Virus record (IMG/VR): IMGVR_UViG_3300017991_000001
Span: 124,001-188,000 of that record
DNA: 64,000 nucleotides
Reading direction: 5' to 3' (one strand)
From: a virus
The stretch's first letter is position 1; each line of letters starts with the position of its first letter. Shown in pieces: positions 834 through 23,224 of the stretch. The notes beneath the pieces are model-generated. The model did not search any database, was not told where the DNA came from, and worked only from the letters and a program-made list of their open reading frames with translations. Made by a program: the position numbers and the translations under genes.

Positions 834-844
834 GGAGGTAGGTG

Positions 845-1774
845 ATGGCTGACACTCCGATGTTCAACCCGATTGACATGCAAAACAATCGGATCAAGAA
901 CCTGCCCGCTCCCGTCGACGATGACGATCCGTTGCGCAAGGTCGACCAGTCTTCCGGCCCAACCGGGGTTACGGGGGCCACCGGCGCCTCGGGCGCGGCC
1001 GGTACGGACGGCGTGACAGGCGTGACGGGTGCCACCGGCGCGGCCGGTGTTACGGGCGTGACCGGGGTCTCGGGCGCGGCCGGTACGGACGGTGTCACGG
1101 GTGTGACCGGAGCCACAGGCTCCGCAGGGGCTCAGGGTGTGACCGGCGTGACTGGTGCTACAGGTTCCGCCGGGTCAGCGGGAGCGCAAGGCGTGACCGG
1201 CGTGACCGGTGCCACGGGCTCGGCGGGTGCTGCCGGCGCCACGGGTGTGACCGGTGCGCAAGGCGTGACCGGCGTGACCGGTGCGACCGGTCTTGGCGTG
1301 ACCGGCGTGACCGGGGCCACGGGCTCAGCGGGTTCCGTTGGCGCGACAGGCGCCACCGGGGCCACCGGTGCCACAGGACCGGCCATCAACGCCACGGAGT
1401 CCGCAATCGGTTCGGTTGAGCTGGCTACTGAGGCCGAAGCTAAGGCTGGTGCTACAGGCGCTGGTAGTGTGGGTCCGCTGGCCGTACGCCCCATTCATCT
1501 GATGGTATACCGCGACCCGAACTATGGTACGCTTATCGCCCGCGCAAACCTGACACCGCCGGCCTCAACTCCGTATGCCCGAGGCTCCTACGCTGTCGAA
1601 CTTCAGTCTGAGATCAACGCCGACGATCAGGTGGCCTATGGGGCCTATGATGTAGTGGTTGGCAGTCGGAATAAGAGTACCCTCGGCAGTTACGCCAACG
1701 TCGTTCATGGGCGAGCCAATTCCTGCGAGGGCGGTGACAACTTCGTTTTCGGCACGTCAAACAGCATCGGCTAG
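845..1774 (+). CDS. Collagen-like tail fibre protein
   Basis: 309 residues from ATG 845; a GTG at 842 is an alternative start, but the GAGGAGG at 832-838 is better spaced for 845. Residues about 4-38 form an N-terminal segment ([18 protein letters not shown]) of the type that starts phage fibres. About residues 38-180 are Gly-x-Thr/Gly-x-Ala triplets ([10 protein letters not shown]) predicted to form a collagen triple helix. A short globular stretch follows (about 185-250), then a C-terminal piece resembling YadA/hemagglutinin head repeats ([20 protein letters not shown]). The next gene continues that repeat type, so the two may build one fibre. Collagen-like phage proteins are known fibre stalks; receptor and sugar specificity are unknown. 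Confidence 0.8.
956..1381 (+). repeat. Collagen-like triplet repeat tract
   Basis: Short GC-rich near-repeats, roughly 'ggcgtgaccggtgccac' variants, encode about 140 residues of Gly-Val-Thr, Gly-Ala-Thr and Gly-Ser-Ala triplets. Glycine occupies every third position with few interruptions. Such tracts recombine and change length easily, so copy number should differ between related phages. Confidence 0.85.
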
Positions 1775-3551: not shown

Positions 3552-4364
3552 ATGCCCACAATCCATTTTCTTGCCGGGCTGCCCCGCAGCGGCTCCACGC
3601 TGCTGATGAACATCCTGGCCCAGAACCCGGACATCCATCCCACGACCACGTCCCCGCTTCCCGAGGCGCTGGTGCGCGCCCGGAACAGCTGGCAGGATAT
3701 CGGGGCGTACAGTGCCAACCCGGACCACCGGGCACGGGACGGAGCGCTCAAGGGGTTGCTGCAGGGGTATTACGCCCACGTCGAGGAACCCGTGGTGATC
3801 GACAAGCACCGCGGGTGGCCGTCCCACATCGAACTGCTCGAACACCTGACGCAGTGCGACGTCAAGATCATTTGCACGGTGCGCTGCATCGTGGACATCC
3901 TTTCGTCGATGGAGAAGCTGTACCGCGCCAACAAGGCGGTGCGACGCCCCGAGGGTGAGGGCCAGGCAGCCGGGCAGTACCTGTCGGTGAAGGGGCGCGC
4001 CAACGTGTGGATGGGCGAAGTCGGGGTGATCGGCTCGGCTTACCTGAACATGCAGGACGCCTGTGCGCGCGGGTACCGGGACCGCCTCCACTTCGTGGAA
4101 TACGGCAACCTGACGAAGTTCCCCGACAAAACCCTCAAGAAGGTCTACAAGTTTCTGGGGATGGAACCCTACGACAGCCATGACTTCGTGAACGTGGAGC
4201 AGACCACGCAGGAGAACGACTACTTCCACGGTTTCGAGGACCTGCACACGATCCGACCCACCGTGGCCCACCAGCACAGCGACGCGACGGAGGTGCTGGG
4301 AGAGGAACTTGTGGCCCTGTACAGCAAGCCCGGCGCCCAGTTCTGGCGTGCTCCGGGCTTCTAA
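3552..4364 (+). CDS. PAPS-dependent sulfotransferase-family protein
   Basis: 270 residues, full length for a small sulfotransferase. The N-terminus has the 5'-phosphosulfate binding loop LAGLPRSGSTLLMNIL (residues 7-22), and a second candidate for the 3'-phosphate site is TVRCIVDILSSMEKLY near residue 115, corresponding to the R-x-P-x-D-x-x-x-S element. The family moves sulfate from PAPS to hydroxyl or amine groups on sugars, peptides or small molecules. An ATG with a weak purine stretch starts it, and possible promoters lie on both sides, so it may be expressed separately. In a phage it could modify host surface or fibre glycans; that is inference. Acceptor unknown. Confidence 0.75.
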   Translation: MPTIHFLAGLPRSGSTLLMNILAQNPDIHPTTTSPLPEALVRARNSWQDIGAYSANPDHRARDGALKGLLQGYYAHVEEPVVIDKHRGWPSHIELLEHLTQCDVKIICTVRCIVDILSSMEKLYRANKAVRRPEGEGQAAGQYLSVKGRANVWMGEVGVIGSAYLNMQDACARGYRDRLHFVEYGNLTKFPDKTLKKVYKFLGMEPYDSHDFVNVEQTTQENDYFHGFEDLHTIRPTVAHQHSDATEVLGEELVALYSKPGAQFWRAPGF

Positions 4365-7571: not shown

Positions 7572-10500
7572 ATGCCTGAAGCCCTTCTCAATGACACGCT
7601 GAGCGCGCCGGTCAAACCAAAACCGGCCGTCACGCATCGCACGTTCGACGACGTGGACACCATGCGCGGCTCCATCTTCGACGGGGTGCTCGACGCCGTG
7701 GCCAAGAAGTACCCGGTCGAGAACACCCGCTATCGCATGGAAGTGGCTGATCTGGGCTACGGCAAGGACAAGCCTTACTCCCTGGAAGACCAGAAAAAAG
7801 CGATCATGACGGGCCAGACGATGACCCGTCAGCTGTCCGGCACCTGGCGCCTGGTCGATAAGGAGTCGGGCAAGGTCGTCGATTCAAAGAAGGCCGTGAT
7901 CGCACACGTGCCCTATGTCACGCCTCGGGGCACCTTCATCTACCGCGGCAACGAGTACACCATCTCCAACCAGATGCGCCTCAAGCCCGGGGTCTACTCC
8001 CGCGTCAAGGACAACGGCATGATCGAGGCCCACTTCAACGTGGCGCCCGGCACCGGCCCGTCCTTCCGCATGTACATGGAGCCGGACACCGGCATCTTCC
8101 GCCTGGCCGTGGGCCAGTCGACGCTGAAGATGTACCCGATCCTGAAGGCCATGGGCGTGCCCGACCGCGAGATCGAGCAGATCTGGGGAAAGGAGCTCCT
8201 GCAGAAGAACACCGAGGCGGCCGACCCGCGCGCCGTCTCCCGCGCCTTCGCCAAGCTGGTGGCGACCCGCGCGGACCAGCCGGGCATCGACGCCGACCGG
8301 GAAGGGCTGGCCAAAGTCGCCCAGTTCACCCAGGTGGACAACGACCTGGTCGTGGGGCCTTCGCGGGTCCACGGCAACGGCTTGTACACGCAGCAGCCCG
8401 TCCCGGCCGGCACGCGCGTCACGCCGGCCTACATCCGCATCGGCATGACCGGCGACACCGAGGCCGACTTCGTGCGTTCCGGGCCGGCGCTGTGGGTCAA
8501 TCACCAGCCCGACGACATGGCCAACACGGTCACGGCCGTAGCACCCGACGGGCGCATGGCCAACCTGATCGCCACCCGCGACATCGAGCCGTGGGAGGAG
8601 ATCACCTGCGACTACGCCAAGAACCACGACACGCTGACGGACTGGGTCAAGCAGCTGTACGACATGGACGAGATGGAGGCCGAGAGGTCGATCTCCAAGA
8701 TCGCCATGTCGAAGACGGCGGCCAAGATCCCGACCGTGGCCGTGGACCTGGACGGCACGCTGGCCGAGATGTACGAGTCCTTCGATCCCAAGAAGATCCC
8801 CGACCCCCGCCCCGGCGCGCGCAAGGCCATGAAGAAGTTCCAGGACAAGGGCTACCGGGTCCTGATCCACACCGTGCGGGGCGACGACCAGCTGACCAAG
8901 GACTGGTTGCACAAGCACGACATCCCCTACGACTACGTCAACGAGAACCCGGACCAGCCCGACACTGCATCCGACAAGCTGATCGCCGACGCCTACGTGG
9001 ACGACCGCGGCGTGCAGGGTGCGCAGGCCTGGCACAAGATCGAGCAACAGGTCTCCGCCAAGCTGGAGAAGGAAGCCAAGATCGGTTTCAAGGACCAGGA
9101 GATGCGGTGGACGAAGTTGTGGTTCCACGGCACCGTGCGGGCCCAGCGCCAGGGCAACGACGGCAAACCGTGGGTCTATGTCCAGGTCCACAAGGGGCTT
9201 ATGGACGCTGCTCGGGACAGCCTCGCCAATGAAGGCGTGGACATCGAGAAGAACCCCAACGACCCGCACATCACGCTTCTGCGCTCCAGCGAAGCCCAGG
9301 AGCTGATCGACCGGCACGGCGAGGAGCAGTGGAAGGGCGCGGCCAAGGACGGCAAGTCCATACGCTTCGCGCTCAGGCGCATGATGTCCCTGATCCCGGA
9401 CGGGTGGGACGGCGTGGACCGGGTCTGGTTCATCGAGGTGGAGAGCCCGGACTTGAAGAAGTACCGGCGCGATCTGGGTTTTCCCGAGCTGCCCATCGGC
9501 GACAACGGCAACGAGCACCGCTTCCACATCACCTTTGCCATCCACCGCTCCAAGAACGAGCCCAAGCGCGCGGCGTACCTGCTTTCCGGTGCCGGCATCG
9601 GAATCGTGGAGCGCGCCTTTGAGAAGGCCGCCGGGGCCACCGACCAGGGCATCGAGCTCAACCAGGTCTTCGACCGCATGGAGCTGGACCCTGACGTGAC
9701 CAAGTCCACGGTCGGTGAGGGCTTCAAGAACGCCGGCATCCCGACGCTGCTCAGGGTCAGCCAGAAGCTCCTGAACATTTCAAAGGGGATGGAGGACACC
9801 GACGACCGGGACTCGCTGGCCTACCAGAAGCTGTACGGTCCCGAGGACTTCTTCACCGAGCGCGTGAACCGCGACGCCGGCCAGACCGGCCGGAAGCTGT
9901 TGTGGCGCGCCACGCTGCGGGGCAACCTGAAACACGTGCCTACGGGGGCGCTTTCCGGGCAAATGTTCGGCGTGCTGCTGAGAAGCGGCATGGGGATGAG
10001 TCTCGAAGAGACCAACCCCATGGACATCATGGACCAGAACCTCCGCGTGATCCGCCTGGGCGAGGGCGGCATTCCGTCGCTGGACTCGGTGCCGGAGGAG
10101 AGCCGAAACGTCCAGCCCAGCCACTTCGCCTACCTGGACCCGATCAGAAGCCCGGAGAGCGAGAAGATCGGCGTGGACTCGCGCGTGTCCCATCGCGTGA
10201 TGAAGGGTTCCGACGGGCAGTTCCACGCGCCCATGTTCAACCCGAAGACAGGCAAGGAGGAGATGGTCTCCGCGGCAAAGGCGGCCGAGTCGGTGGTGGC
10301 CTTTCCGGGCGAGCTGAACAAGAAGCGCGGCAAGGTCAGGGCCATGGTCAAGTCCAGGCAGGTCCAGTACGTGGACCGCAAGGACGTGGACTACGAGGTC
10401 GAAGACCCCAACCAGATGTTCACGCTCAGCTCCAACCTGGTTCCCCTGGTGTCGGGCATCAAGGGCGGGCGCCTGCTGATGGGCGCCAAGTACTTCACCC

Positions 10501-13500
10501 AGGCGCTGCCCCTGCGCGAGCGGGAGGCCCCGCTGGTCCGCAACCTGGAGAGGAGCGGCAAGTCCTTTGACGAGCTGTACGGGGACCGGGTGGGTGCCAT
10601 ACGCGCGCAGGCTCCGGGTGTGGTGACCTCGATGAACAAGAACGGCATCAAGGTCAAGTACGCCGACGGGACCACCAAGGAGCATGAGCTGTATCGCAAC
10701 TTCCCCTTCAACCGGAAGAGCCTGACCGGGGATTGCGAGGTGCTGATCAAGCGTAACGGCGAACTCCTTGTTACGCGACTGGACGCCTACGAATTCGAGC
10801 AGGGGGACCTGACGCTGTCGATCGACCCTGAAACGAAGTTGTCCGCATGGATGGAGGTAACTGGCTATACGCGTCACGAGTGTGACAAGCGCCTGTACCG
10901 GGTCAAAACGGATTCAGGCAGAGCCTTCACAATAACTGAGGATCACAGCTTGATGGTGATGGGCCCTGAAGGCGATCTCGTCCCCGCTTACCCAAGCGCT
11001 TGCGTCGTTGGGCACACGCGCATACCCGTGGCGCTGCCTCGTTTTGAAGGGTGTCGCGGATTTTTCGGCGAGGACAAGCTGGGAACGTTGACCGGCCTGT
11101 ACCTGGCGGAAGGACATATTCCTCAGAACCAGCCCAATCTCATCATCATAGCGGTTGCGCCGGAAGAGCGGGCAGACGAGGTAATGCGGCTGTTTCGCGA
11201 ACTTGGCTGCAAACCTTTCAGGAACGGCGGTTCCGTGTGCGCTACCGATGCTGATTTGAGCAAGTTTCTCATAAAGAACTGCGGACACCTTTCGCACGGC
11301 AAGTTTATCGGCCGACAGCTGATGAATGCCAACATGTCGTTCAAACAGGCTCTGTTACAAGGCTATTTGGCCGGCGACGGCAACTTGTGGGCGGACAGAA
11401 ACGGCACTGTTCAGCTCACGGCAGTGACCGTATCCAAACGTCTTCGCGACGATCTGGTCGTTCTCGCGGGCACTTTGGGAGTCTTCACGACGCTTTTCGA
11501 CGTACCCCGTGACAACGAGGCATGGCGTGACGGCTACGGGCTGCGCTTCCCGAACAAGGAATTGAAGCGGACGCGGTGGATGTTCTACGAGGACCGTCAA
11601 CGCCTGCTCGACGCGTTGGTTAGGGAGAACACGCGCGCGTCCAAGTTTGACGTGGTTCCGGTGCCACGGGAAGCGCGTAAAGCCTTGTATGGCGAGTTGG
11701 AAACTGTGCCGCATTTCGTCTACAAAACGGTTAACAAGGGCTACGTGGCGAAACACAGAGTGCGTACGGGGTCTGGTGTTTTTGGAAAGTGGGGCGCCTC
11801 CGACGTGTCCTGGGACCGGATCAAGTCGATTACGGAGGTGCCCAGCGAGGAATATGTTTATGACCTGTCCGTGGCGGCATCCGAGGCTTTTGCGGTAAAC
11901 GGCGGCGTCGTTGTCCACAACACGTTCATCCACAACACCCCGACCGTTAAGATCGGGGACCGGGTCCGCAAGGGGCAGTTGCTGGCCACCAGCAACTACA
12001 CGGACGACCAGGGCGCGCTGGCGCTGGGCACCAACCTGCGCACCGCCTACGTGCCCTACAAGGGCCTCAACTTCGAGGACGCCATTGTCATCTCCGAGTC
12101 GGCGGCCAAGCGGCTCTCCAGCGAGCACATGTACCAGCACACGCTCGACAAGGAGGACGACACGGTCACGGGGCGCAAGCAGTTCGTCTCGATCTACCCG
12201 ACGACCTTCAACCGCAAGCAGCTAGGCGCGCTGGACGAGCGCGGCGTGGCCAAGGTGGGCACCACCATCAAGTACGGCGACCCCGTGGTGCTGTCCATGC
12301 GCAAGAACCAACCCTCGGCCGTGCATCGGGGCCGCAAGCCCATGTACACCGACACCTCCATCACCTGGGATCACGAGTCCCCGGGCATGGTGACCGGCGT
12401 GGACGAGACGGACGACGGCGGCTTCAACGTGACGGTGAAGGCCTACATGCCGGCACAGGAGGGGGACAAGCTGGCCGGCCGCTACGGCGACAAGGGCGTG
12501 ATCTCCAAGGTCGTGCCCGACGACCAGATGATGCACGACCGGGACGGCAAGCCCTACGAGATCCTGCTCAACCCGTTGGGCATCATCACGCGCGGCAACC
12601 CCTCCCAGGTGTACGAGACGCTGCTGGGCAAGGTGGCCCGCAAGCGGGGCAAGCCCATTAGTGTGCCGGGCTTCATGGACGAGAGCATGGTGGACTACGT
12701 GCGGAAGGAGCTCAGCCGGGAGCGGATGAAGTCGCATGAGGACCTCTACGACCCGACCACCAACCGCAAGGTGCCGGACATCCTGACCGGGGACCGCTTC
12801 ATCTTCAAGCTGCACCACACCGCCGAGTCCAAGGGCAAGGGCCGCGACGTGGGCGCCTACACCTCCGAGGGCATCCCGGCCAAGGGCGGCGAGTTGGGCT
12901 CAAAGCGGGTCAGCAACATGGAGCAGAACGCCCTGCTGTCCCATGGCGCGACCGGCGTGCTGCGCGACGCCCAGGTGGTCAGGGGCCAGCGCAACGACGA
13001 CTTCTGGCGGGCCTTCAGGATGGGCTACACGCCCCCCTCGCCGAGCGTGCCCATGGTCTACGACAAGTTCCTCAACCACCTGCGCGGCGCCGGCATCAAC
13101 GTCAAGAAGAACGGCGACCGGACGCAGCTGCTGGCCATGACCGACAAGGACGTGGACGAGATGACCAGCGGGGAGATCACCGAGGCCAAGACGGTGGACT
13201 CCGACACGCTCAAGGAGATCGACGGTGGGCTGTTCGATCGCGGGCTCACCGGAGGGCACGGGGGCAGCCGCTGGAGCCATATAAAACTGGCCGAACCCAT
13301 GCCCAATCCCGTGATGGAAGAGCCCATTCGTCGCATGTTGGGCCTGACCAAGGTCAAGTTCGAGGAGGTCCTGCAGGGCAAGGAGGACATCGGCGGCGAG
13401 ACGGGCACCAAGGCCATCGGGGCGGCGCTGAAGCGCATCAACCTGGACGAGGCCATCGACAACGCCAAGCTGATCATCAAGGACGGCGCGAAGTCCAAGC

Positions 13501-14504
13501 GGGACAACGCGGTCAAGACGCTGGGCTACTACGAGACGCTCAAGAAGGCCGGGATGAAGCCCAGCGACCTGATGCTCTCCAAGGTGCCGGTGCTGCCGCC
13601 GTCCATGCGCCCGATCACCCAGTACCGGTCCATGCAGCTCTCGGCCGACCCGAACTTCCTGTACCGGGACCTGATCAACGCCAACACGGACCTCAAGGAG
13701 ATCTCGTCCGAGCTGGGCCGCAGGCACGGCGGCAGGGCGCGGTTGCGCACCTACCACGCCTTCAAGGCCGTGACCGGCCTGGGCGACCCCGTGCAGGCCA
13801 AGACCCAGGAGAAGCGGGTCAAGGGTCTCCTGGCCCACGTCTTCGGCTCCAGCCCGAAGTTCGGGATGTTCCAGCGCCGGGTGCTGGGCAGCCCCGTGGA
13901 CGTGGTGGGCCGGGCGGCGATCACGCCCAACCCGAGCCTGAGCATGGACCAGGTGGGCATCCCCGAGGACAAGGTCTGGACGATCTACCGGCCCTTCGTG
14001 GTCCGGCGCCTGATCCGCCGCGGCATGCCGGCGATGGACGCGGCCAAGGCTGCGGCCAACCGCACGGAGGTGGCGGCCAACGCGCTGCAGGAGGAGATTT
14101 CCACGCGGCCCGTTCTGATCAACCGCGCGCCCACGCTGCACCGCTACGGGTTCATGGCGGCCTGGCCGGTGCTGACCAAGGGCAAGACCCTGCAGGTCTC
14201 CCCGACCACGGTGGGCGGCTTCAACGCGGACTTCGACGGCGACGCGATGAACTACCACGTGCCGGTGACCGACGAGGCCGTCGCTGACGCGGTGGACAAG
14301 ATGCTGCCCAGCAAGAACCTGAAGTCCGCGAGGTTCTTCAAGACCCATTACGTGCCCGTCAACGAGTTCCTGATGGGCCTGTACCTGGCCAGTACGGCCA
14401 AGAGCGACAAGCCGTTACGGGTGTTCCGGGACAAGAAGGACGTGCTGGCTGCCTACCAGCGCGGGGACATCGGCCTGGGAGACCGTGTTTCCATAAGGAG
14501 CTGA
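7572..14504 (+). CDS. Phage RNA polymerase: beta fused to N-terminal half of beta', with inserted enzyme domains and an intein
   Basis: 2310 residues from ATG 7572. Beta landmarks in order: GTFIYRGNEYTISNQ (about 117), DDRDSLAYQKLYGPE (about 740), LDPIRSPESEKIGV (about 855), NFEDAIVISES (after the intein), AGRYGDKGVISK (about 1632), and the clamp block GELGSKRVSNMEQNALLSHG (about 1775). Beta' landmarks follow: LFDRGLTGGHGG (about 1880), VPVLPPSMRP, VLINRAPTLHRYG and the catalytic Mg-binding NADFDGD at 2218-2224. It ends just after the dock/active-site region; the rest of beta' is the gene at 18262. SET-like, HAD-like and 2H-like domains occupy about residues 256-665. The usual N-terminal beta' zinc cysteines are not seen. 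Start upstream of 7572 would overlap the previous gene. Should transcribe phage genes together with the downstream half. Confidence 0.93.
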   Translation: MPEALLNDTLSAPVKPKPAVTHRTFDDVDTMRGSIFDGVLDAVAKKYPVENTRYRMEVADLGYGKDKPYSLEDQKKAIMTGQTMTRQLSGTWRLVDKESGKVVDSKKAVIAHVPYVTPRGTFIYRGNEYTISNQMRLKPGVYSRVKDNGMIEAHFNVAPGTGPSFRMYMEPDTGIFRLAVGQSTLKMYPILKAMGVPDREIEQIWGKELLQKNTEAADPRAVSRAFAKLVATRADQPGIDADREGLAKVAQFTQVDNDLVVGPSRVHGNGLYTQQPVPAGTRVTPAYIRIGMTGDTEADFVRSGPALWVNHQPDDMANTVTAVAPDGRMANLIATRDIEPWEEITCDYAKNHDTLTDWVKQLYDMDEMEAERSISKIAMSKTAAKIPTVAVDLDGTLAEMYESFDPKKIPDPRPGARKAMKKFQDKGYRVLIHTVRGDDQLTKDWLHKHDIPYDYVNENPDQPDTASDKLIADAYVDDRGVQGAQAWHKIEQQVSAKLEKEAKIGFKDQEMRWTKLWFHGTVRAQRQGNDGKPWVYVQVHKGLMDAARDSLANEGVDIEKNPNDPHITLLRSSEAQELIDRHGEEQWKGAAKDGKSIRFALRRMMSLIPDGWDGVDRVWFIEVESPDLKKYRRDLGFPELPIGDNGNEHRFHITFAIHRSKNEPKRAAYLLSGAGIGIVERAFEKAAGATDQGIELNQVFDRMELDPDVTKSTVGEGFKNAGIPTLLRVSQKLLNISKGMEDTDDRDSLAYQKLYGPEDFFTERVNRDAGQTGRKLLWRATLRGNLKHVPTGALSGQMFGVLLRSGMGMSLEETNPMDIMDQNLRVIRLGEGGIPSLDSVPEESRNVQPSHFAYLDPIRSPESEKIGVDSRVSHRVMKGSDGQFHAPMFNPKTGKEEMVSAAKAAESVVAFPGELNKKRGKVRAMVKSRQVQYVDRKDVDYEVEDPNQMFTLSSNLVPLVSGIKGGRLLMGAKYFTQALPLREREAPLVRNLERSGKSFDELYGDRVGAIRAQAPGVVTSMNKNGIKVKYADGTTKEHELYRNFPFNRKSLTGDCEVLIKRNGELLVTRLDAYEFEQGDLTLSIDPETKLSAWMEVTGYTRHECDKRLYRVKTDSGRAFTITEDHSLMVMGPEGDLVPAYPSACVVGHTRIPVALPRFEGCRGFFGEDKLGTLTGLYLAEGHIPQNQPNLIIIAVAPEERADEVMRLFRELGCKPFRNGGSVCATDADLSKFLIKNCGHLSHGKFIGRQLMNANMSFKQALLQGYLAGDGNLWADRNGTVQLTAVTVSKRLRDDLVVLAGTLGVFTTLFDVPRDNEAWRDGYGLRFPNKELKRTRWMFYEDRQRLLDALVRENTRASKFDVVPVPREARKALYGELETVPHFVYKTVNKGYVAKHRVRTGSGVFGKWGASDVSWDRIKSITEVPSEEYVYDLSVAASEAFAVNGGVVVHNTFIHNTPTVKIGDRVRKGQLLATSNYTDDQGALALGTNLRTAYVPYKGLNFEDAIVISESAAKRLSSEHMYQHTLDKEDDTVTGRKQFVSIYPTTFNRKQLGALDERGVAKVGTTIKYGDPVVLSMRKNQPSAVHRGRKPMYTDTSITWDHESPGMVTGVDETDDGGFNVTVKAYMPAQEGDKLAGRYGDKGVISKVVPDDQMMHDRDGKPYEILLNPLGIITRGNPSQVYETLLGKVARKRGKPISVPGFMDESMVDYVRKELSRERMKSHEDLYDPTTNRKVPDILTGDRFIFKLHHTAESKGKGRDVGAYTSEGIPAKGGELGSKRVSNMEQNALLSHGATGVLRDAQVVRGQRNDDFWRAFRMGYTPPSPSVPMVYDKFLNHLRGAGINVKKNGDRTQLLAMTDKDVDEMTSGEITEAKTVDSDTLKEIDGGLFDRGLTGGHGGSRWSHIKLAEPMPNPVMEEPIRRMLGLTKVKFEEVLQGKEDIGGETGTKAIGAALKRINLDEAIDNAKLIIKDGAKSKRDNAVKTLGYYETLKKAGMKPSDLMLSKVPVLPPSMRPITQYRSMQLSADPNFLYRDLINANTDLKEISSELGRRHGGRARLRTYHAFKAVTGLGDPVQAKTQEKRVKGLLAHVFGSSPKFGMFQRRVLGSPVDVVGRAAITPNPSLSMDQVGIPEDKVWTIYRPFVVRRLIRRGMPAMDAAKAAANRTEVAANALQEEISTRPVLINRAPTLHRYGFMAAWPVLTKGKTLQVSPTTVGGFNADFDGDAMNYHVPVTDEAVADAVDKMLPSKNLKSARFFKTHYVPVNEFLMGLYLASTAKSDKPLRVFRDKKDVLAAYQRGDIGLGDRVSIRS
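8337..8630 (+). other. SET-like domain inserted in RNA polymerase beta
   Basis: Residues about 256-352 carry SET signatures: VVGPSRVHGNGLYT at the start, a middle VNHQPDDMANTVTA corresponding to the NH..xxN motif, then LIATRDIEPWEEITCDYA, matching the conserved I-x-A-x-RDI-x-x-x-EEIT-x-DY end with the catalytic-type Tyr. SET domains usually transfer methyl groups from SAM to lysine. Whether it is active, and on what (polymerase, host protein), is unknown. Confidence 0.8.
8730..9020 (+). other. HAD-like hydrolase domain inserted in RNA polymerase beta
   Basis: Residues about 387-482. Motif I is VDLDGTL at 391-397 with the nucleophile and acid/base Asp pair (D392, D394). A Thr/Arg motif follows in VLIHTVRG, WLHKHDIPYDYVNENP matches phage HAD proteins, K-L-I-A-D supplies the lysine, and AYVDDRG (about 475-480) gives the motif IV acids. 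All catalytic positions appear intact, so it is probably an active phosphatase or nucleotidase. Confidence 0.85.
9100..9570 (+). other. 2H-phosphoesterase-like domain inserted in RNA polymerase beta
   Basis: Residues about 510-666 contain two H-x-T motifs, PHITLL (H566, T568) and FHITFAIH (H652, T654), about 86 residues apart. That pairing defines the 2H (LigT/cyclic phosphodiesterase) fold. Family members act on 2',5' or cyclic phosphodiester bonds in RNA ends or signalling nucleotides. The substrate here is unknown; an anti-defence or RNA-end role is speculation. Confidence 0.75.
10719..11921 (+). mobile_element. Intein with LAGLIDADG homing endonuclease in RNA polymerase beta
   Basis: 401 residues (protein positions 1050-1450). 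Block A begins at Ser1 in SLTGDCEVLI, block B is TITEDHSLMV, the two endonuclease motifs are LTGLYLAEGHI and LQGYLAGDGNL with both acidic residues, block F is EEYVYDLSVAASEAFAVNG and block G is VVVHN followed by Thr+1. Removing it joins FNRK to TFIHNTP, which lines up with the conserved beta sequence around NQNTCINQMP of bacterial polymerases. The insertion lies shortly upstream of the catalytic NFED. It looks fully functional for splicing and cutting; GC content is visibly lower than the flanking extein. Confidence 0.93.
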
Positions 14505-18261: not shown

Positions 18262-20100
18262 ATGGAAACGACGGTTGGACAGCTCCTGCTGAACGAGGCC
18301 TTGCCCGAGGACATGCGCGACTACCGCCGTGTCATCGACAAGAAGTCCCTCGCGCCGCTGTTCACCGAACTGGCCGAGAAGCACCCCGACCACTACGCCG
18401 AGATCAACCAGCGCCTCCACACCCTGGCCGCCGACGCGGTGACGGGGCACGGCGGCGTGACCAGCCTCACGCTCGACTCGCTGCGCACGCCGCTGGGCAT
18501 CGAGCGCGCCCGCAAGGAACTGCAAAAGAAGATCGACAAGGTGCTGGACGGACCCGGCACCCAGGAACAGAAGAATGAAAGAATCGTGGGACTGATCTCC
18601 GACGCGCTGGAGCCCGTCACGCAGGAGAATTACAAAGAGAACCTGGCGGCCGACAACCCGCTGGCCGTGCAGGTTTCCTCCGGCAGCCGGGGCAACCCCG
18701 CCGGCCTGCGCTCCCTGACAGCAGGGGATCTGCTTTTCACGGACCACAAGGACCGCCCGATCCCGGTGCCGGTCCTTACGTCTTTCTCGGAAGGGTTGGA
18801 CCCCGTGCAGTACTGGGCCGGCGCGTACACGGCCCGCAAGGGCACCATCGCCACCAAGTTTGCCACCCCCAAGTCGGGGTTCCTGGGCAAGCAGCTCGCG
18901 GCGGCCTCCCACCGCCTGGTGGTCACCGAAAAGGATTGCGGCACGCCCAACGGCCTCGTGGTGGACGCTCACGACCCGGACAACGAGGGGGCCGTGCTGG
19001 CTTCGGACGCTGGCGCGTTCAAACGCGGCGAGGTGCTGGACCCCAATAACATGCGCAAGCTGAAGGACCAGATCGTGGTGCGTTCGCCCATGACCTGCCA
19101 GGCGGAGAACGGCATCTGCCAGCAGTGCGCCGGGGTGCGCGAGCGAGGCGGCTTCCCGCCTATCGGCGACAACGTCGGGATGGCCGCCGCACACGCCATC
19201 TCCGAACCCATCGGGCAGGGTCAGCTGAACGTCAAACACGGCGGCGGGAAGCTGAAAAAGCGCGACGAGGCCAAGACGGGCATCGACCTGATCAACCAAC
19301 TCGTGCAGGTTCCCAAGACTTTTGCCGGGGCTGCTGCGATATCAACCGTTGACGGTCGAGTCGAGCGGGTGGAGAATGCTCCACAAGGCGGCCAGTACAT
19401 TCGGATTGCGGGTACCGAACATTGGGTGCCGGCAGGCGAGGACCTGGTTGTCAAGCGTGGGGACAAGGTGGAGGCCGGGGACGTCCTTTCCAGCGGCATC
19501 CCGAACCCGGCCGAGATCACGCGCTTCAAGGGGATCGGGGAGGGCCGGCGGTACTTCATGGAGATGTTCCGCAAGACGCTGGAGGAGAACCGCTTCAAGG
19601 CGCACCGGCGCAACGTGGAACTGCTCTCCAGGGGCCTGATCAACCACGTCAGGGTGACGGATCTGGACGGACCGGCGGACACCCTGCCCGACGACGTGGC
19701 CGAGTACGACGACATCGTGCGCGGATATCAGGCCCGTTATGGCTCCAAAACGGTTGCCCCGAAGCGTGCCCTTGGGTTATACCTGGAACGTCCCGCACTG
19801 CACTATTCGATCGGGACGCGCGTCACGCCCCGCGTGGCCAAGAGTTTGCAGGACCACGGCGTAGAAAATGTGCTGGCCCATGCCGACGAACCAAGCTTCG
19901 TACCGGAGATGACACGGGCGATGGAAACCCTCTCACACTCCAGCGACTGGATGGTGCGATTGGGCGGTTTCCATTTGAAAAAGTCCTTAATGGGGGCGTT
20001 GCACCGTGGACGAGAGTCCAAGGAGCACGGCACCTCATTCATCCCTCCACTCGCGAAGGGCGTCGAGTTCGGCAAGCCAAAAGGCGACGTCGGATACTGA
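18262..20100 (+). CDS. RNA polymerase beta' subunit, C-terminal half
   Basis: 612 residues. It starts TTVGQLLLNEALPEDMRD, equal to the TTxGRxLLxxxLP block that follows the beta' position where the upstream fusion gene ends. The bridge-helix region shows SSGSRGNPAGLRSL and YTARKGTIATKFATPKSGFL. The structural zinc site is complete: Cys226 (DCGT), Cys279, Cys286 and Cys289 with the spacing of E. coli 814/888/895/898. The trigger loop EPIGQGQLNVKH (315-326) keeps Leu, Asn and His in the Pol II-like arrangement. The C-terminus is short and diverged. It must assemble with the beta-beta'N protein to make an active enzyme. Confidence 0.92.
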   Translation: METTVGQLLLNEALPEDMRDYRRVIDKKSLAPLFTELAEKHPDHYAEINQRLHTLAADAVTGHGGVTSLTLDSLRTPLGIERARKELQKKIDKVLDGPGTQEQKNERIVGLISDALEPVTQENYKENLAADNPLAVQVSSGSRGNPAGLRSLTAGDLLFTDHKDRPIPVPVLTSFSEGLDPVQYWAGAYTARKGTIATKFATPKSGFLGKQLAAASHRLVVTEKDCGTPNGLVVDAHDPDNEGAVLASDAGAFKRGEVLDPNNMRKLKDQIVVRSPMTCQAENGICQQCAGVRERGGFPPIGDNVGMAAAHAISEPIGQGQLNVKHGGGKLKKRDEAKTGIDLINQLVQVPKTFAGAAAISTVDGRVERVENAPQGGQYIRIAGTEHWVPAGEDLVVKRGDKVEAGDVLSSGIPNPAEITRFKGIGEGRRYFMEMFRKTLEENRFKAHRRNVELLSRGLINHVRVTDLDGPADTLPDDVAEYDDIVRGYQARYGSKTVAPKRALGLYLERPALHYSIGTRVTPRVAKSLQDHGVENVLAHADEPSFVPEMTRAMETLSHSSDWMVRLGGFHLKKSLMGALHRGRESKEHGTSFIPPLAKGVEFGKPKGDVGY

Positions 20101-20632: not shown

Positions 20633-23224
20633 ATGCCGGCGCCAAACGCATCAGAAAGCAACTTGGAGCGCACCTTTGCGGACGTGGCGTACGCCCGACT
20701 GCGCGACAAGGCTCCCTCCATGCTGGACTACCTGATCGGGTTCCAGCTCGTCGACAAGAACGAAGAGGAGACCCACGCGGTGGGGATCTTCGGGTTCAAG
20801 GTGGGATCAGAGTGGGTCTATGCCCCCGTGTTCTTCATCAACGGGGAGCTGAAGGGCCACGAGCTGATGTACATCAAGAGCCAGGACGCGTTCGTGCCGA
20901 TGACCGAGGAGTGGGTCAACTACATCCTCAACCGCAGGCCGTCCGTGCTGGGCGAGCCGGAGGAGCGGGAGCGCAACGAAATACCGCTGCGCCAGCCCGA
21001 CTTCGACGTGTTCGCCCGGAGTCCGTACATCGGCTCCAAGTTCGCGGCGCACACCCGGCCCAGCTTCAATCAGATCGTGGAGCGGATGGACCCGAACCTG
21101 CACGGGTTCATGCCCGTCTTCCACCCCGAGAACTGGCCCAACGGGAAGAAGTACGCGTCGCTGGGCACGCGCTTCACCGTGCCCGGAGCGCTCAAGGCGC
21201 TGGGCAAGCGGGCGATGCTCAACCTCGTGGCCTCTATGAAGGAGGACGAGAAGTTCGCCAACGCCGTATTGGGGTTCTACGACCTGAAGAATGACATCGC
21301 CGGCTTTGAGAAAGCGGCCAAGGCGGACAAGGACTCCGTCAACTACCAGGAGGACGCGGCCTTCTCGAAGTGTAGCGCCTGCAACAACTACACGGAGGGC
21401 GGCGGCTGCACCCAGGTCTCCGGTGACATCTCACCCAACGCGACCTGTTCCCTGTGGTCCGCCGCGACAGCCAAGCCGGTGGAACCCATCGAGCCGATCA
21501 AGGCCGGCTCCACCGACGCGGACAAAGGCCCGCATACGGAATCGACCGGCAAGGGCAAGAAGCCCAAGAACACCATCCCCGTGGACAAGCCCGTCACGCA
21601 GGAGGAGCAGGACGAGCACGGCCGCGAGGAGGACCTCCTCAACGACCTGCAGCCCGCCATGCCCCTCAAGGGCGCGGCCCTGGTGATCACGCAGGAGGAG
21701 GCCACGCAGTACGACCCCTACCTGACCGACACCGACCGCGAGGCGCTGATGCGGGAACGCTATCTGATCAAGGACGCCCGGCACGACGACGCGACCTCGC
21801 AGGTCTACTCTACCCAGGTCAACACGTCCGTGCAGGGACCGCGCGATCCGGGCCTGTACGACGTCTACAACCGCGACGGCGGCACGCGGAAGATGCTGAT
21901 CATCACCGCGCCGAAGCTCTTCTCGGCGTACGGTCGCCGGGACAAGAACGGCATGTGCGTGGTCGTGGACCTGGACCAGAAGGCCTACGGCAACTATTTC
22001 CCCGTCGACATCCTGACCCGCCAGCAGTATGGCTCCAGCGCCATGAAGAACCTGCTCAACAGTGGCACCGACCCGAAGAACATGAAGCCCGGGCAGACCG
22101 CCGTGCTTGTGGGCCCGGGGTGCAAAGGCACGTGCGTTTTCCAGGTGGACAACAAGCGCACCAACGGCGACGGGCAGGTGGAGTTCGACGTGTGGGGGCG
22201 GGACCACGACATGTCCTCCAACTCGCTGGTCAAGCGGCGCGACACCAACATCTCGGACGACGATTTCTCCGATTCGGTGCGCAGTCTGGTGATCACGGAC
22301 AAGGACGTGCCGGACATGCAGCAGGTCGGCGAGGCCCTGTACGTGCCGAAGGGGTTCAAGGCCATCGTGATCCGGGAGTCGGACAAGCTCAGGGACACCG
22401 TCTGTTGCCCCCCGCCGAAGTCCGCGCCGAAGTCCACGCTGGACCTGGGCAACATCAACGACTTCTGGCAGCAGCTGTGGAAGGCCGCCGGCGAGAAGAA
22501 GGGCCGGTACCGCCGCATGCGCATCCTGACCGACGGCATCACCTTCAAGACCGATCTCAACGGGACGCAGGGTCCGCCCCTGTCCAAGGTGGCCACCCTG
22601 AAGACCCTGGTCATGACCTACGGCCTGAACCAGAAGGATGCGGAACTGCTGGTCAAGCAGGCGCAGCCGCGCAAGGCTTGCAACTACATCGTAAAGCTGG
22701 CGCAAGGATACGGTGACGCGCCCGCGCCCGCCTACTTCCCGGAACCGGCTATGGGCAACGAAGGCGGCATCCCGGCCCCGATCCAGTACCCCCAGCACAA
22801 CCTGGAGAACCTGGGCCAGATCGATCCGTTCAACCGGGAGATGTACCGCGAGCACAACTACATCGACGAGGGCGCCAAGCGCTTCGCGGAGAACGCCTCC
22901 CAGCAGGGCCAGAAGGAGGTGCTCGACACCGCGGTGATCTCGGGCCTGGTGAAGACCATGGACTCGGACGCCGTCGTGGACAGCTACATCGGCGACCTGC
23001 TGTTGGGGCTGGACCGTATCGGGCGCATCCTGTTCATGTTCTACTGGCACAACGAGGCCTTCAAGGAGCGCTACGGCCAGCAGGACATGCCGGAGATGGA
23101 AGACAACCTTCGCAACGTCTTCAAGAACCTGGGCGAGCTGGCCCTGTTCCTGAAGCAGAAGACGATCGAGCCGGACGAAGCCGACAGTGGGGAGGCGGAA
23201 CTGACAAACGTCCTGGCATCATGA
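20633..23224 (+). CDS. Large unassigned structural-type protein with four-Cys (HiPIP-like) motif
   Basis: 863 residues. Residues 1-235 are a well-folded domain (YLIGFQLVDKNEEETHAVGI, VYAPVFFINGELKGHELMYI). Then Cys247, 250, 259 and 272 occur as KCSACNNYTEGGGCTQVSG...ISPNATCSLW, resembling a shortened high-potential iron-sulfur motif. A charged linker (about 285-345) leads to a beta-rich domain (about 370-640) and a helical C-terminal part (about 750-850) with LDRIGRILFMFYWHNEAF. Such cluster motifs occur in some phage head proteins. Its size and place before the head module suggest a virion protein; a portal or core role cannot be shown from sequence. Confidence 0.65.
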   Translation: MPAPNASESNLERTFADVAYARLRDKAPSMLDYLIGFQLVDKNEEETHAVGIFGFKVGSEWVYAPVFFINGELKGHELMYIKSQDAFVPMTEEWVNYILNRRPSVLGEPEERERNEIPLRQPDFDVFARSPYIGSKFAAHTRPSFNQIVERMDPNLHGFMPVFHPENWPNGKKYASLGTRFTVPGALKALGKRAMLNLVASMKEDEKFANAVLGFYDLKNDIAGFEKAAKADKDSVNYQEDAAFSKCSACNNYTEGGGCTQVSGDISPNATCSLWSAATAKPVEPIEPIKAGSTDADKGPHTESTGKGKKPKNTIPVDKPVTQEEQDEHGREEDLLNDLQPAMPLKGAALVITQEEATQYDPYLTDTDREALMRERYLIKDARHDDATSQVYSTQVNTSVQGPRDPGLYDVYNRDGGTRKMLIITAPKLFSAYGRRDKNGMCVVVDLDQKAYGNYFPVDILTRQQYGSSAMKNLLNSGTDPKNMKPGQTAVLVGPGCKGTCVFQVDNKRTNGDGQVEFDVWGRDHDMSSNSLVKRRDTNISDDDFSDSVRSLVITDKDVPDMQQVGEALYVPKGFKAIVIRESDKLRDTVCCPPPKSAPKSTLDLGNINDFWQQLWKAAGEKKGRYRRMRILTDGITFKTDLNGTQGPPLSKVATLKTLVMTYGLNQKDAELLVKQAQPRKACNYIVKLAQGYGDAPAPAYFPEPAMGNEGGIPAPIQYPQHNLENLGQIDPFNREMYREHNYIDEGAKRFAENASQQGQKEVLDTAVISGLVKTMDSDAVVDSYIGDLLLGLDRIGRILFMFYWHNEAFKERYGQQDMPEMEDNLRNVFKNLGELALFLKQKTIEPDEADSGEAELTNVLAS

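What the first reader, a model, noticed from the sequence alone, without database searches (positions are those of the whole stretch)
7572..14504. A beta-beta'N fused phage RNA polymerase with three enzyme domains built into beta
One 2310-residue chain carries beta and the catalytic NADFDGD-containing half of beta'. A block of about 400 residues in the N-terminal third is not polymerase: it reads as SET-like, HAD-like and 2H-phosphoesterase-like domains in tandem, each with its key motifs intact. Natural beta-beta' fusions are known in Helicobacter and Wolbachia, and phage multisubunit polymerases with split subunits are known in phiKZ-like phages, but I do not know of a polymerase with these three inserted enzymes. 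Methylation, dephosphorylation and phosphodiester hydrolysis in cis could alter the polymerase, its transcripts or host defence signals.
Basis: partly seen in the sequence, partly recalled or inferred. Interest (0 to 1): 0.95.

Follow-up and report, generated by a model that had tools for sequence, protein, structure and literature searches.

The report
Enzyme cassette inside phage RNA polymerase
A large uncultured phage carries an RNA polymerase whose beta part has swallowed three small enzymes that sister phages keep as separate neighbouring genes, showing that one spot in the polymerase serves as a swappable slot for extra enzymes.

Summary
One 2310-residue ORF encodes beta plus the catalytic half of beta'. 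About 440 residues in the N-terminal third are absent from Arash, D69 and nearly all IMG/VR relatives. They contain SET, HAD and 2H phosphoesterase domains, each above Pfam's cut-off when scanned alone, with catalytic motifs intact. The beta-beta'N fusion is ordinary for this phage group. The new finding is an insertion hotspot: in one RNAP clade the same site holds SET-HAD-2H (window), HAD-2H, SET-2H, unknown domain-2H, Cys-rich domain-2H, or a short Cys-rich stub. Compact-RNAP relatives carry the same families as separate or differently fused genes about 7-25 kb upstream, often adjacent, including one 2H-SET protein and one 2H-GNAT-Cys-HAD protein. This looks like a 2H/HAD/SET accessory module moved into the polymerase. 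Best guess: RNA-end or nucleotide-signal phosphate clean-up by 2H+HAD, plus protein methylation by SET, delivered with or held at the polymerase. Action specifically in cis is not supported. Activities and virion packaging are untested; structure prediction of the insert failed. Precedents are HD-fused AR9 vRNAP and N4-like polyvalent vRNAP, hence a new variant.

The parts
7572..14504 (+). ORF of the beta-beta'N RNA polymerase precursor, 2310 aa (about 1914 aa after intein removal)
7572..8303 (+). beta N-terminal region up to the insertion site (aa 1-244, boundary approximate)
   Evidence: model pLDDT about 80-95 over most of it
8304..9641 (+). inserted cassette at the beta hotspot (about aa 245-690, boundaries approximate)
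   Evidence: absent from Arash, D69 and compact relatives
8319..8675 (+). SET domain (aa 250-368); GNG, NH and EEITCDY motifs
   Evidence: PF00856 29.7 bits; invariant SET residues across six relatives
8718..9062 (+). HAD phosphatase domain (aa 383-497); DLDGT, T, K and DD motifs
   Evidence: PF24694 29.8 bits; BT0820 HAD 4.8e-13; PDB 2obb 7.9e-8; phrog_1238 3.6e-24
9075..9590 (+). 2H phosphoesterase domain (aa 502-673); PHIT and FHIT motifs at aa 564-570 and 651-656
   Evidence: PF22547 33.3 bits; both His and the second Thr invariant in 15 relatives
10734..11921 (+). intein with LAGLIDADG homing endonuclease (aa 1055-1450; Cys1, C-terminal His-Asn, +1 Thr)
   Evidence: PF14890 8.7e-15, PF14528 1.1e-8; TIGR01445, TIGR01443
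11922..13106 (+). beta C-terminal part with Rpb2 domain 6 (about aa 1451-1845)
13119..14504 (+). beta' N-terminal part, catalytic NADFDGD at 14223-14243
18262..20100 (+). beta' C-terminal subunit, 612 aa
   Evidence: PF04998 1.6e-18; rpoC 7.7e-60

Best explanation
Shown: one site in the beta lobe region of this phage RNAP clade accepts whole enzyme domains. 2H is the commonest occupant and SET, HAD and other domains are swapped beside it; the window has the largest set, SET-HAD-2H. The same families occur in compact-RNAP relatives as an accessory gene module upstream of the polymerase. Inferred: the module entered the polymerase ORF once in the ancestor of this clade and was then reshuffled and sometimes lost. 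Inferred mechanism: 2H opens 2',3'-cyclic (or similar) phosphodiesters on RNA ends or nucleotides left by host defence nucleases or signalling; HAD removes the freed terminal phosphate; SET methylates a lysine on a host or phage protein. Being part of RNAP fixes stoichiometry and location, and, if this RNAP is packaged, delivers the enzymes with it at infection.
For: Hotspot variants at one site: window SET-HAD-2H, L007 HAD-2H, L101 SET-2H, L010 unknown-2H, L009 and L103 Cys-2H-helical, L008 short stub. Insert-bearing RNAPs group together, SH-aLRT 90-93. Separate 2H gene in 23 of 31 genomes without an embedded 2H versus 0 of 5 with one, same strand, 6.7-24.8 kb upstream, mostly 8.4-9.2. G014 has a 2H-SET protein next to a HAD protein; G047 has 2H-GNAT-Cys-HAD in one protein; G040 and G031 have HAD next to 2H; G016, G025 and G042 have SET next to 2H. 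The HAD is 59% identical to the separate G014 one and related to the phage D69 polynucleotide kinase-phosphatase. One separate 2H protein also carries a P-loop kinase. Catalytic residues are conserved while the rest diverges.
Against: No activity, substrate or packaging was tested. Published analysis of polyvalent 2H domains found they do not associate with RNA ligases and favoured RNase or 2'-5' oligoadenylate roles (PMC5512222). The presence/absence contrast between embedded and separate 2H is confounded by phylogeny: it is essentially one evolutionary transition. Neither 2H form was detected in L008's or L190's genome, so the function is dispensable. Some 2H copies have lost both His. The hotspot maps near the main channel, not the RNA exit, by alignment only.
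Confidence: 0.5

Rival explanations
1. Polyvalent cargo: the RNAP is packaged in the virion and carries the enzymes in as counter-defence effectors; 2H destroys cyclic oligonucleotide or similar alarm signals, and RNA repair is not involved.
For: N4-like virion RNAPs carry peptidase, ART, lysozyme and other domains, and 2H is a known polyvalent-protein domain (PMC5512222). A relative fuses the same HAD to the polyvalent InPase domain. The RNAP gene lies near tail-fibre-like and baseplate genes and follows the portal gene in Arash.
Against: No packaging data. No PADLOC model hits these domains. Pfam assigns the 2H to the SAK family, not to a family described for signal degradation.
Confidence: 0.25
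2. In-cis modification as first proposed: SET methylates the polymerase or sigma-like partners, and HAD and 2H process nascent transcripts at the elongation complex.
For: Physical fusion to RNAP; SET, HAD and 2H motifs intact.
Against: Relatives keep the same domains as separate proteins. The insertion site aligns with the beta lobe/SI1 region, far from the RNA exit channel by general knowledge of RNAP structure.
Confidence: 0.12
3. Mainly structural decoration: the site tolerates any compact domain, as lineage-specific inserts do in cellular beta, and enzyme activity is incidental.
For: Cellular beta has its SI1 insert in the same region; L008 has only a short stub; the L059/L062-64 group has a 2H-like domain without catalytic His near the site.
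Against: Both His and the second Thr of 2H, HAD motifs and SET motifs stay conserved while overall identity falls to 19-60%.
Confidence: 0.1
4. Assembly chimera or misread diverged beta lobe.
For: Structure prediction of the insert alone was poor (pLDDT 42).
Against: A contig of another record is 99.995% identical; frame open throughout; graded variants of the same insert in other phages.
Confidence: 0.02

Closest known systems
mReC phages: deep-branching multi-subunit RNAP of Caudovirales (PMC7481178)
   Same: Large uncultured tailed-phage contigs encoding beta and beta' RNAP close to bacterial type with NADFDG; drawn from IMG/VR
   Different: That paper's text, as searched, does not describe the beta-beta'N fusion, the hotspot, inserted enzymes or inteins
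AR9/PBS1 virion RNAP with fused HD phosphohydrolase (PMC7598289)
   Same: An enzyme domain joined to a phage multi-subunit RNAP beta part
   Different: One terminal HD domain on a split beta fragment; here SET, HAD and 2H lie inside an unsplit beta and are swapped between relatives
N4-like polyvalent virion RNAP (PMC5512222)
   Same: RNAP chain carrying several unrelated enzyme domains with varying architectures
   Different: Single-subunit T7-type RNAP, domains appended; here a two-barrel RNAP with internal insertion
2H and Swiss-army-knife HAD RNA-repair enzymes of jumbo phages (PMC7824862)
   Same: 2H-SAK family and a small HAD related to the polynucleotide kinase phosphatase domain
   Different: Normally separate proteins; here embedded in RNAP
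Salmonella phage Arash and Vibrio phage D69 RNAP
   Same: Same beta-beta'N plus beta'C arrangement, about 32% identity
   Different: No insert and no intein

Membership tests
Two-barrel multi-subunit RNAP | beta' DxDGD catalytic motif and beta Rpb2 domain 6 | tested here: met
   NADFDGD at aa 2218-2224; PF00562 4e-48, PF00623 6e-24
Two-barrel multi-subunit RNAP | beta' C-terminal part present | tested here: met
   window 18262-20100, PF04998 and rpoC
phiKZ/AR9-type split RNAP | beta split into two or more polypeptides | tested here: not met
   beta is one chain, fused to beta'N
mReC phages | RNAP places in the mReC clade; shared capsid and terminase families | not tested
   mReC sequences were not included in the trees; capsid and terminase not searched
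SET methyltransferase | GxG, NH(S)xxxN and E-x-x-x-(D)Y motifs, Pfam SET | tested here: met
   29.7 bits over 22.4; invariant G15, G17, N56, H57, N62, E85, Y90 of A13
SET methyltransferase | SET fold | tested here: inconclusive
   model confidence too low there
HAD phosphatase | DxDGT, Thr, Lys and DD motifs | tested here: met
   DLDGT, T434, K469, D477 D478; shared with relatives
2H phosphoesterase | two HxT/S motifs | tested here: met
   PHIT and FHIT; invariant His in 15 relatives
2H phosphoesterase | 2H fold | tested here: inconclusive
   2H part pLDDT about 45-92; PDB ranks 2, 3 and 5 are 2H-type enzymes but E about 0.3 or worse
Intein | Cys1, C-terminal His-Asn, +1 Cys/Ser/Thr, splicing domain, LAGLIDADG | tested here: met
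Polyvalent protein | several unrelated enzyme domains in one chain | tested here: met
   RNAP plus SET, HAD, 2H
Polyvalent protein | packaged and transferred with DNA | not testable with these tools
   no proteomics
RNA-repair (SAK) system | healing enzymes with an RNA ligase in the same genome | tested here: inconclusive
   A LigD_N 3'-phosphoesterase plus ATP-ligase gene 7.8 kb upstream scores weakly for both RNA and DNA ligase

The most novel reading that the evidence does not exclude
The beta lobe of a phage RNAP works as a cassette slot: a virion-borne polymerase that carries interchangeable counter-defence enzymes into the host, loaded from a neighbouring effector gene module.
Probability: 0.3. 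Interest if true: 0.88.

Novelty: new variant of a known kind. Interest (0 to 1): 0.72.

Why it matters
Cellular RNAPs have lineage-specific inserts in beta, usually thought structural or regulatory. Here the comparable region accepts whole enzymes that sister phages keep as separate genes, so the origin and cost of RNAP inserts become testable by comparison. The separate-versus-fused contrast also links SET, HAD and 2H functionally and points to an unstudied phage accessory module.

Tried and rejected
Foldseek of the insert gave no significant PDB match; two giant-virus proteins of unknown function matched in BFVD at E 3e-5 and 7.5e-4. Profile search of 2H against PDB gave nothing. PADLOC gave nothing. 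Searching IMG/VR with the SET or HAD alone found only known loci. Rejected: chimera, diverged beta lobe, and the idea that the beta-beta'N fusion is itself unusual.

Full report
What is there. Window 7572-14504 (+) is one open frame of 2310 codons in a 211,084-base IMG/VR virus record. Profile searches find beta and beta' along it, with NADFDGD at aa 2218-2224; the remaining half of beta' is the 612-aa gene at 18262-20100. A contig of another record is 99.995% identical over 20.6 kb.

Residues 1055-1450 are an intein with a LAGLIDADG endonuclease (PF14890 8.7e-15, PF14528 1.1e-8; TIGR01445 and TIGR01443). It starts with Cys and ends His-Asn before Thr. L008 and L042 have an insertion of about 400 aa at the same site, and L010, L020, L030 and L101 have inserts of intein size at other beta sites; L101 and L103 show intein-like sequence. 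The mature chain is about 1914 aa.

The inserted block. Arash (1525 aa) and D69 (1527 aa) have the same beta-beta'N fusion but lack the block and the intein. Among the IMG/VR and genome relatives with both flanks readable, members of one RNAP clade carry inserts of 89-450 aa at this site; nearly all others differ by 0 +/- 9 residues. Two distant genome loci (L158, L161, 27-30% identity) show 130-140 extra residues here, as cellular beta with its own insert would. The L059/L062-64 group has a 183-aa insertion placed about 30 aa further on.

Domain identity. Scanned alone, the three domains pass Pfam's curated cut-offs: SET 29.7 bits (cut-off 22.4), LNS2-type HAD 29.8 (27.7), 2H-SAK 33.3 (27); in the full-length scan they fall just below. 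Genome scans pass for SET and 2H. HAD also matches BT0820-type HADs (4.8e-13), PDB 2obb (7.9e-8) and phage polynucleotide kinase families. The canonical motifs are present, and the residues conserved across relatives include the catalytic ones: both 2H His plus the second Thr in 15 sequences at 19-56% identity; GxG, NH, N, E and Y of SET in six sequences; DLDGT, Thr, Lys and Asp of HAD in RNAP-embedded and separate copies. Fold confirmation failed: pLDDT 42 for the insert alone, good beta core with partial 2H in the longer model, and no significant PDB match for the insert.

A swappable slot. At the same site: window SET-HAD-2H; L007 HAD-2H; L101 SET-2H; L010 unknown alpha/beta-2H; L009 and L103 Cys-rich-2H-helical; L008 short Cys-rich stub. 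RNAP core trees place the insert-bearing enzymes together (SH-aLRT 90 and 93), with compact L190 nested inside in the second tree; the L059 group moves between trees, so its place is unsure. Its 2H-like domain has lost both catalytic His. Alignment to E. coli beta places the hotspot between about residues 222 and 400, in the region of the SI1 insert and the adjoining lobe; exact placement is uncertain and any closeness to the gate loop rests on general knowledge.

The same domains outside the polymerase. In compact-RNAP relatives 2H is a separate gene on the same strand, 6.7-24.8 kb upstream, mostly 8.4-9.2 kb: 23 of 31 genomes without an embedded 2H, against 0 of 5 with one (Fisher p 0.003). 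A further 14 mostly more distant genomes gave 3; with them p is 0.02. This contrast follows the phylogeny and is about one transition, so the p value overstates it. G014 has a 2H-SET protein beside a HAD protein that also carries the unknown domain of the L010 cassette. G047 has 2H-GNAT-Cys-HAD in one 625-aa protein. G031 and G040 have HAD within about 2.5 kb of 2H; G016, G025 and G042 have SET next to a 2H gene, degenerate where it was read, in G016 and G025. Exceptions: SET in G008 without 2H, and in G028 far from 2H. The window HAD is 59% identical to the G014 HAD. One separate 2H protein contains a P-loop kinase.

Function. 2H enzymes act on 2',3'-cyclic, 2'-5' or related phosphodiesters, and small HADs of the polynucleotide-kinase type remove terminal phosphates; both are described as RNA-repair parts in jumbo phages (PMC7824862). 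Their repeated pairing supports joint action. Against a simple repair role, polyvalent 2H domains were reported not to associate with RNA ligases (PMC5512222). The window genome has a LigD_N 3'-phosphoesterase fused to an ATP ligase 7.8 kb upstream, fused further to SNF2 in L007's genome, and a tmRNA. SET substrates are unknown. Because the enzymes also exist apart, the polymerase is best seen as carrier or anchor, not necessarily as substrate. Packaging is unproven; tail-fibre-like and baseplate genes lie in the same window and the portal gene precedes RNAP in Arash.

Novelty. HD-fused AR9 vRNAP (PMC7598289) and N4-like polyvalent vRNAP (PMC5512222) show enzyme domains attached to phage RNAPs. 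Internal insertion of SET, HAD and 2H into a two-barrel beta, the swapping at one site, and the matching upstream gene module were not found in the papers searched. That library holds open-licence papers only.

Noticed in passing
window 10734-11921; L008, L042, L010, L101, L103, L020, L030: Inteins or intein-size inserts at several different sites in phage beta-beta' genes; the window site is shared with L008 and the distant L042, which suggests horizontal movement.
   Followed up: partly
G000 122271-123815 (L107:877-2421), just upstream of the window: LigD_N 3'-phosphoesterase fused to an ATP-dependent ligase; in L007's genome the same unit is fused to a SNF2 helicase in one 1217-aa protein.
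   Followed up: partly
G000, L091:4426-4790: Phage-encoded tmRNA (Rfam RF00023, 93.6 bits).
   Followed up: partly
G000, L087:15106-15180: tRNA with CUA anticodon (ARAGORN calls it tRNA-Pyl); TAG ends 6 of 33 checked ORFs, so amber suppression is possible but reassignment is not evident.
   Followed up: partly
window 20633-23224 (about 21275-21457): 863-aa protein downstream of beta'C holds a Cys-rich domain similar to the one in the L009 RNAP cassette (33% over 61 aa, 9e-8).
   Followed up: partly
window 3552-4364: Sulfotransferase gene (PF13469, 9.4e-17) in the phage genome.
   Followed up: no
window 842-1774: Collagen-like tail fibre protein (many PHROG tail fibre hits).
   Followed up: no
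L059, L062-L064 RNAP; L126, L127: 2H-like domains that lost both catalytic His, in RNAP and as separate genes.
   Followed up: partly
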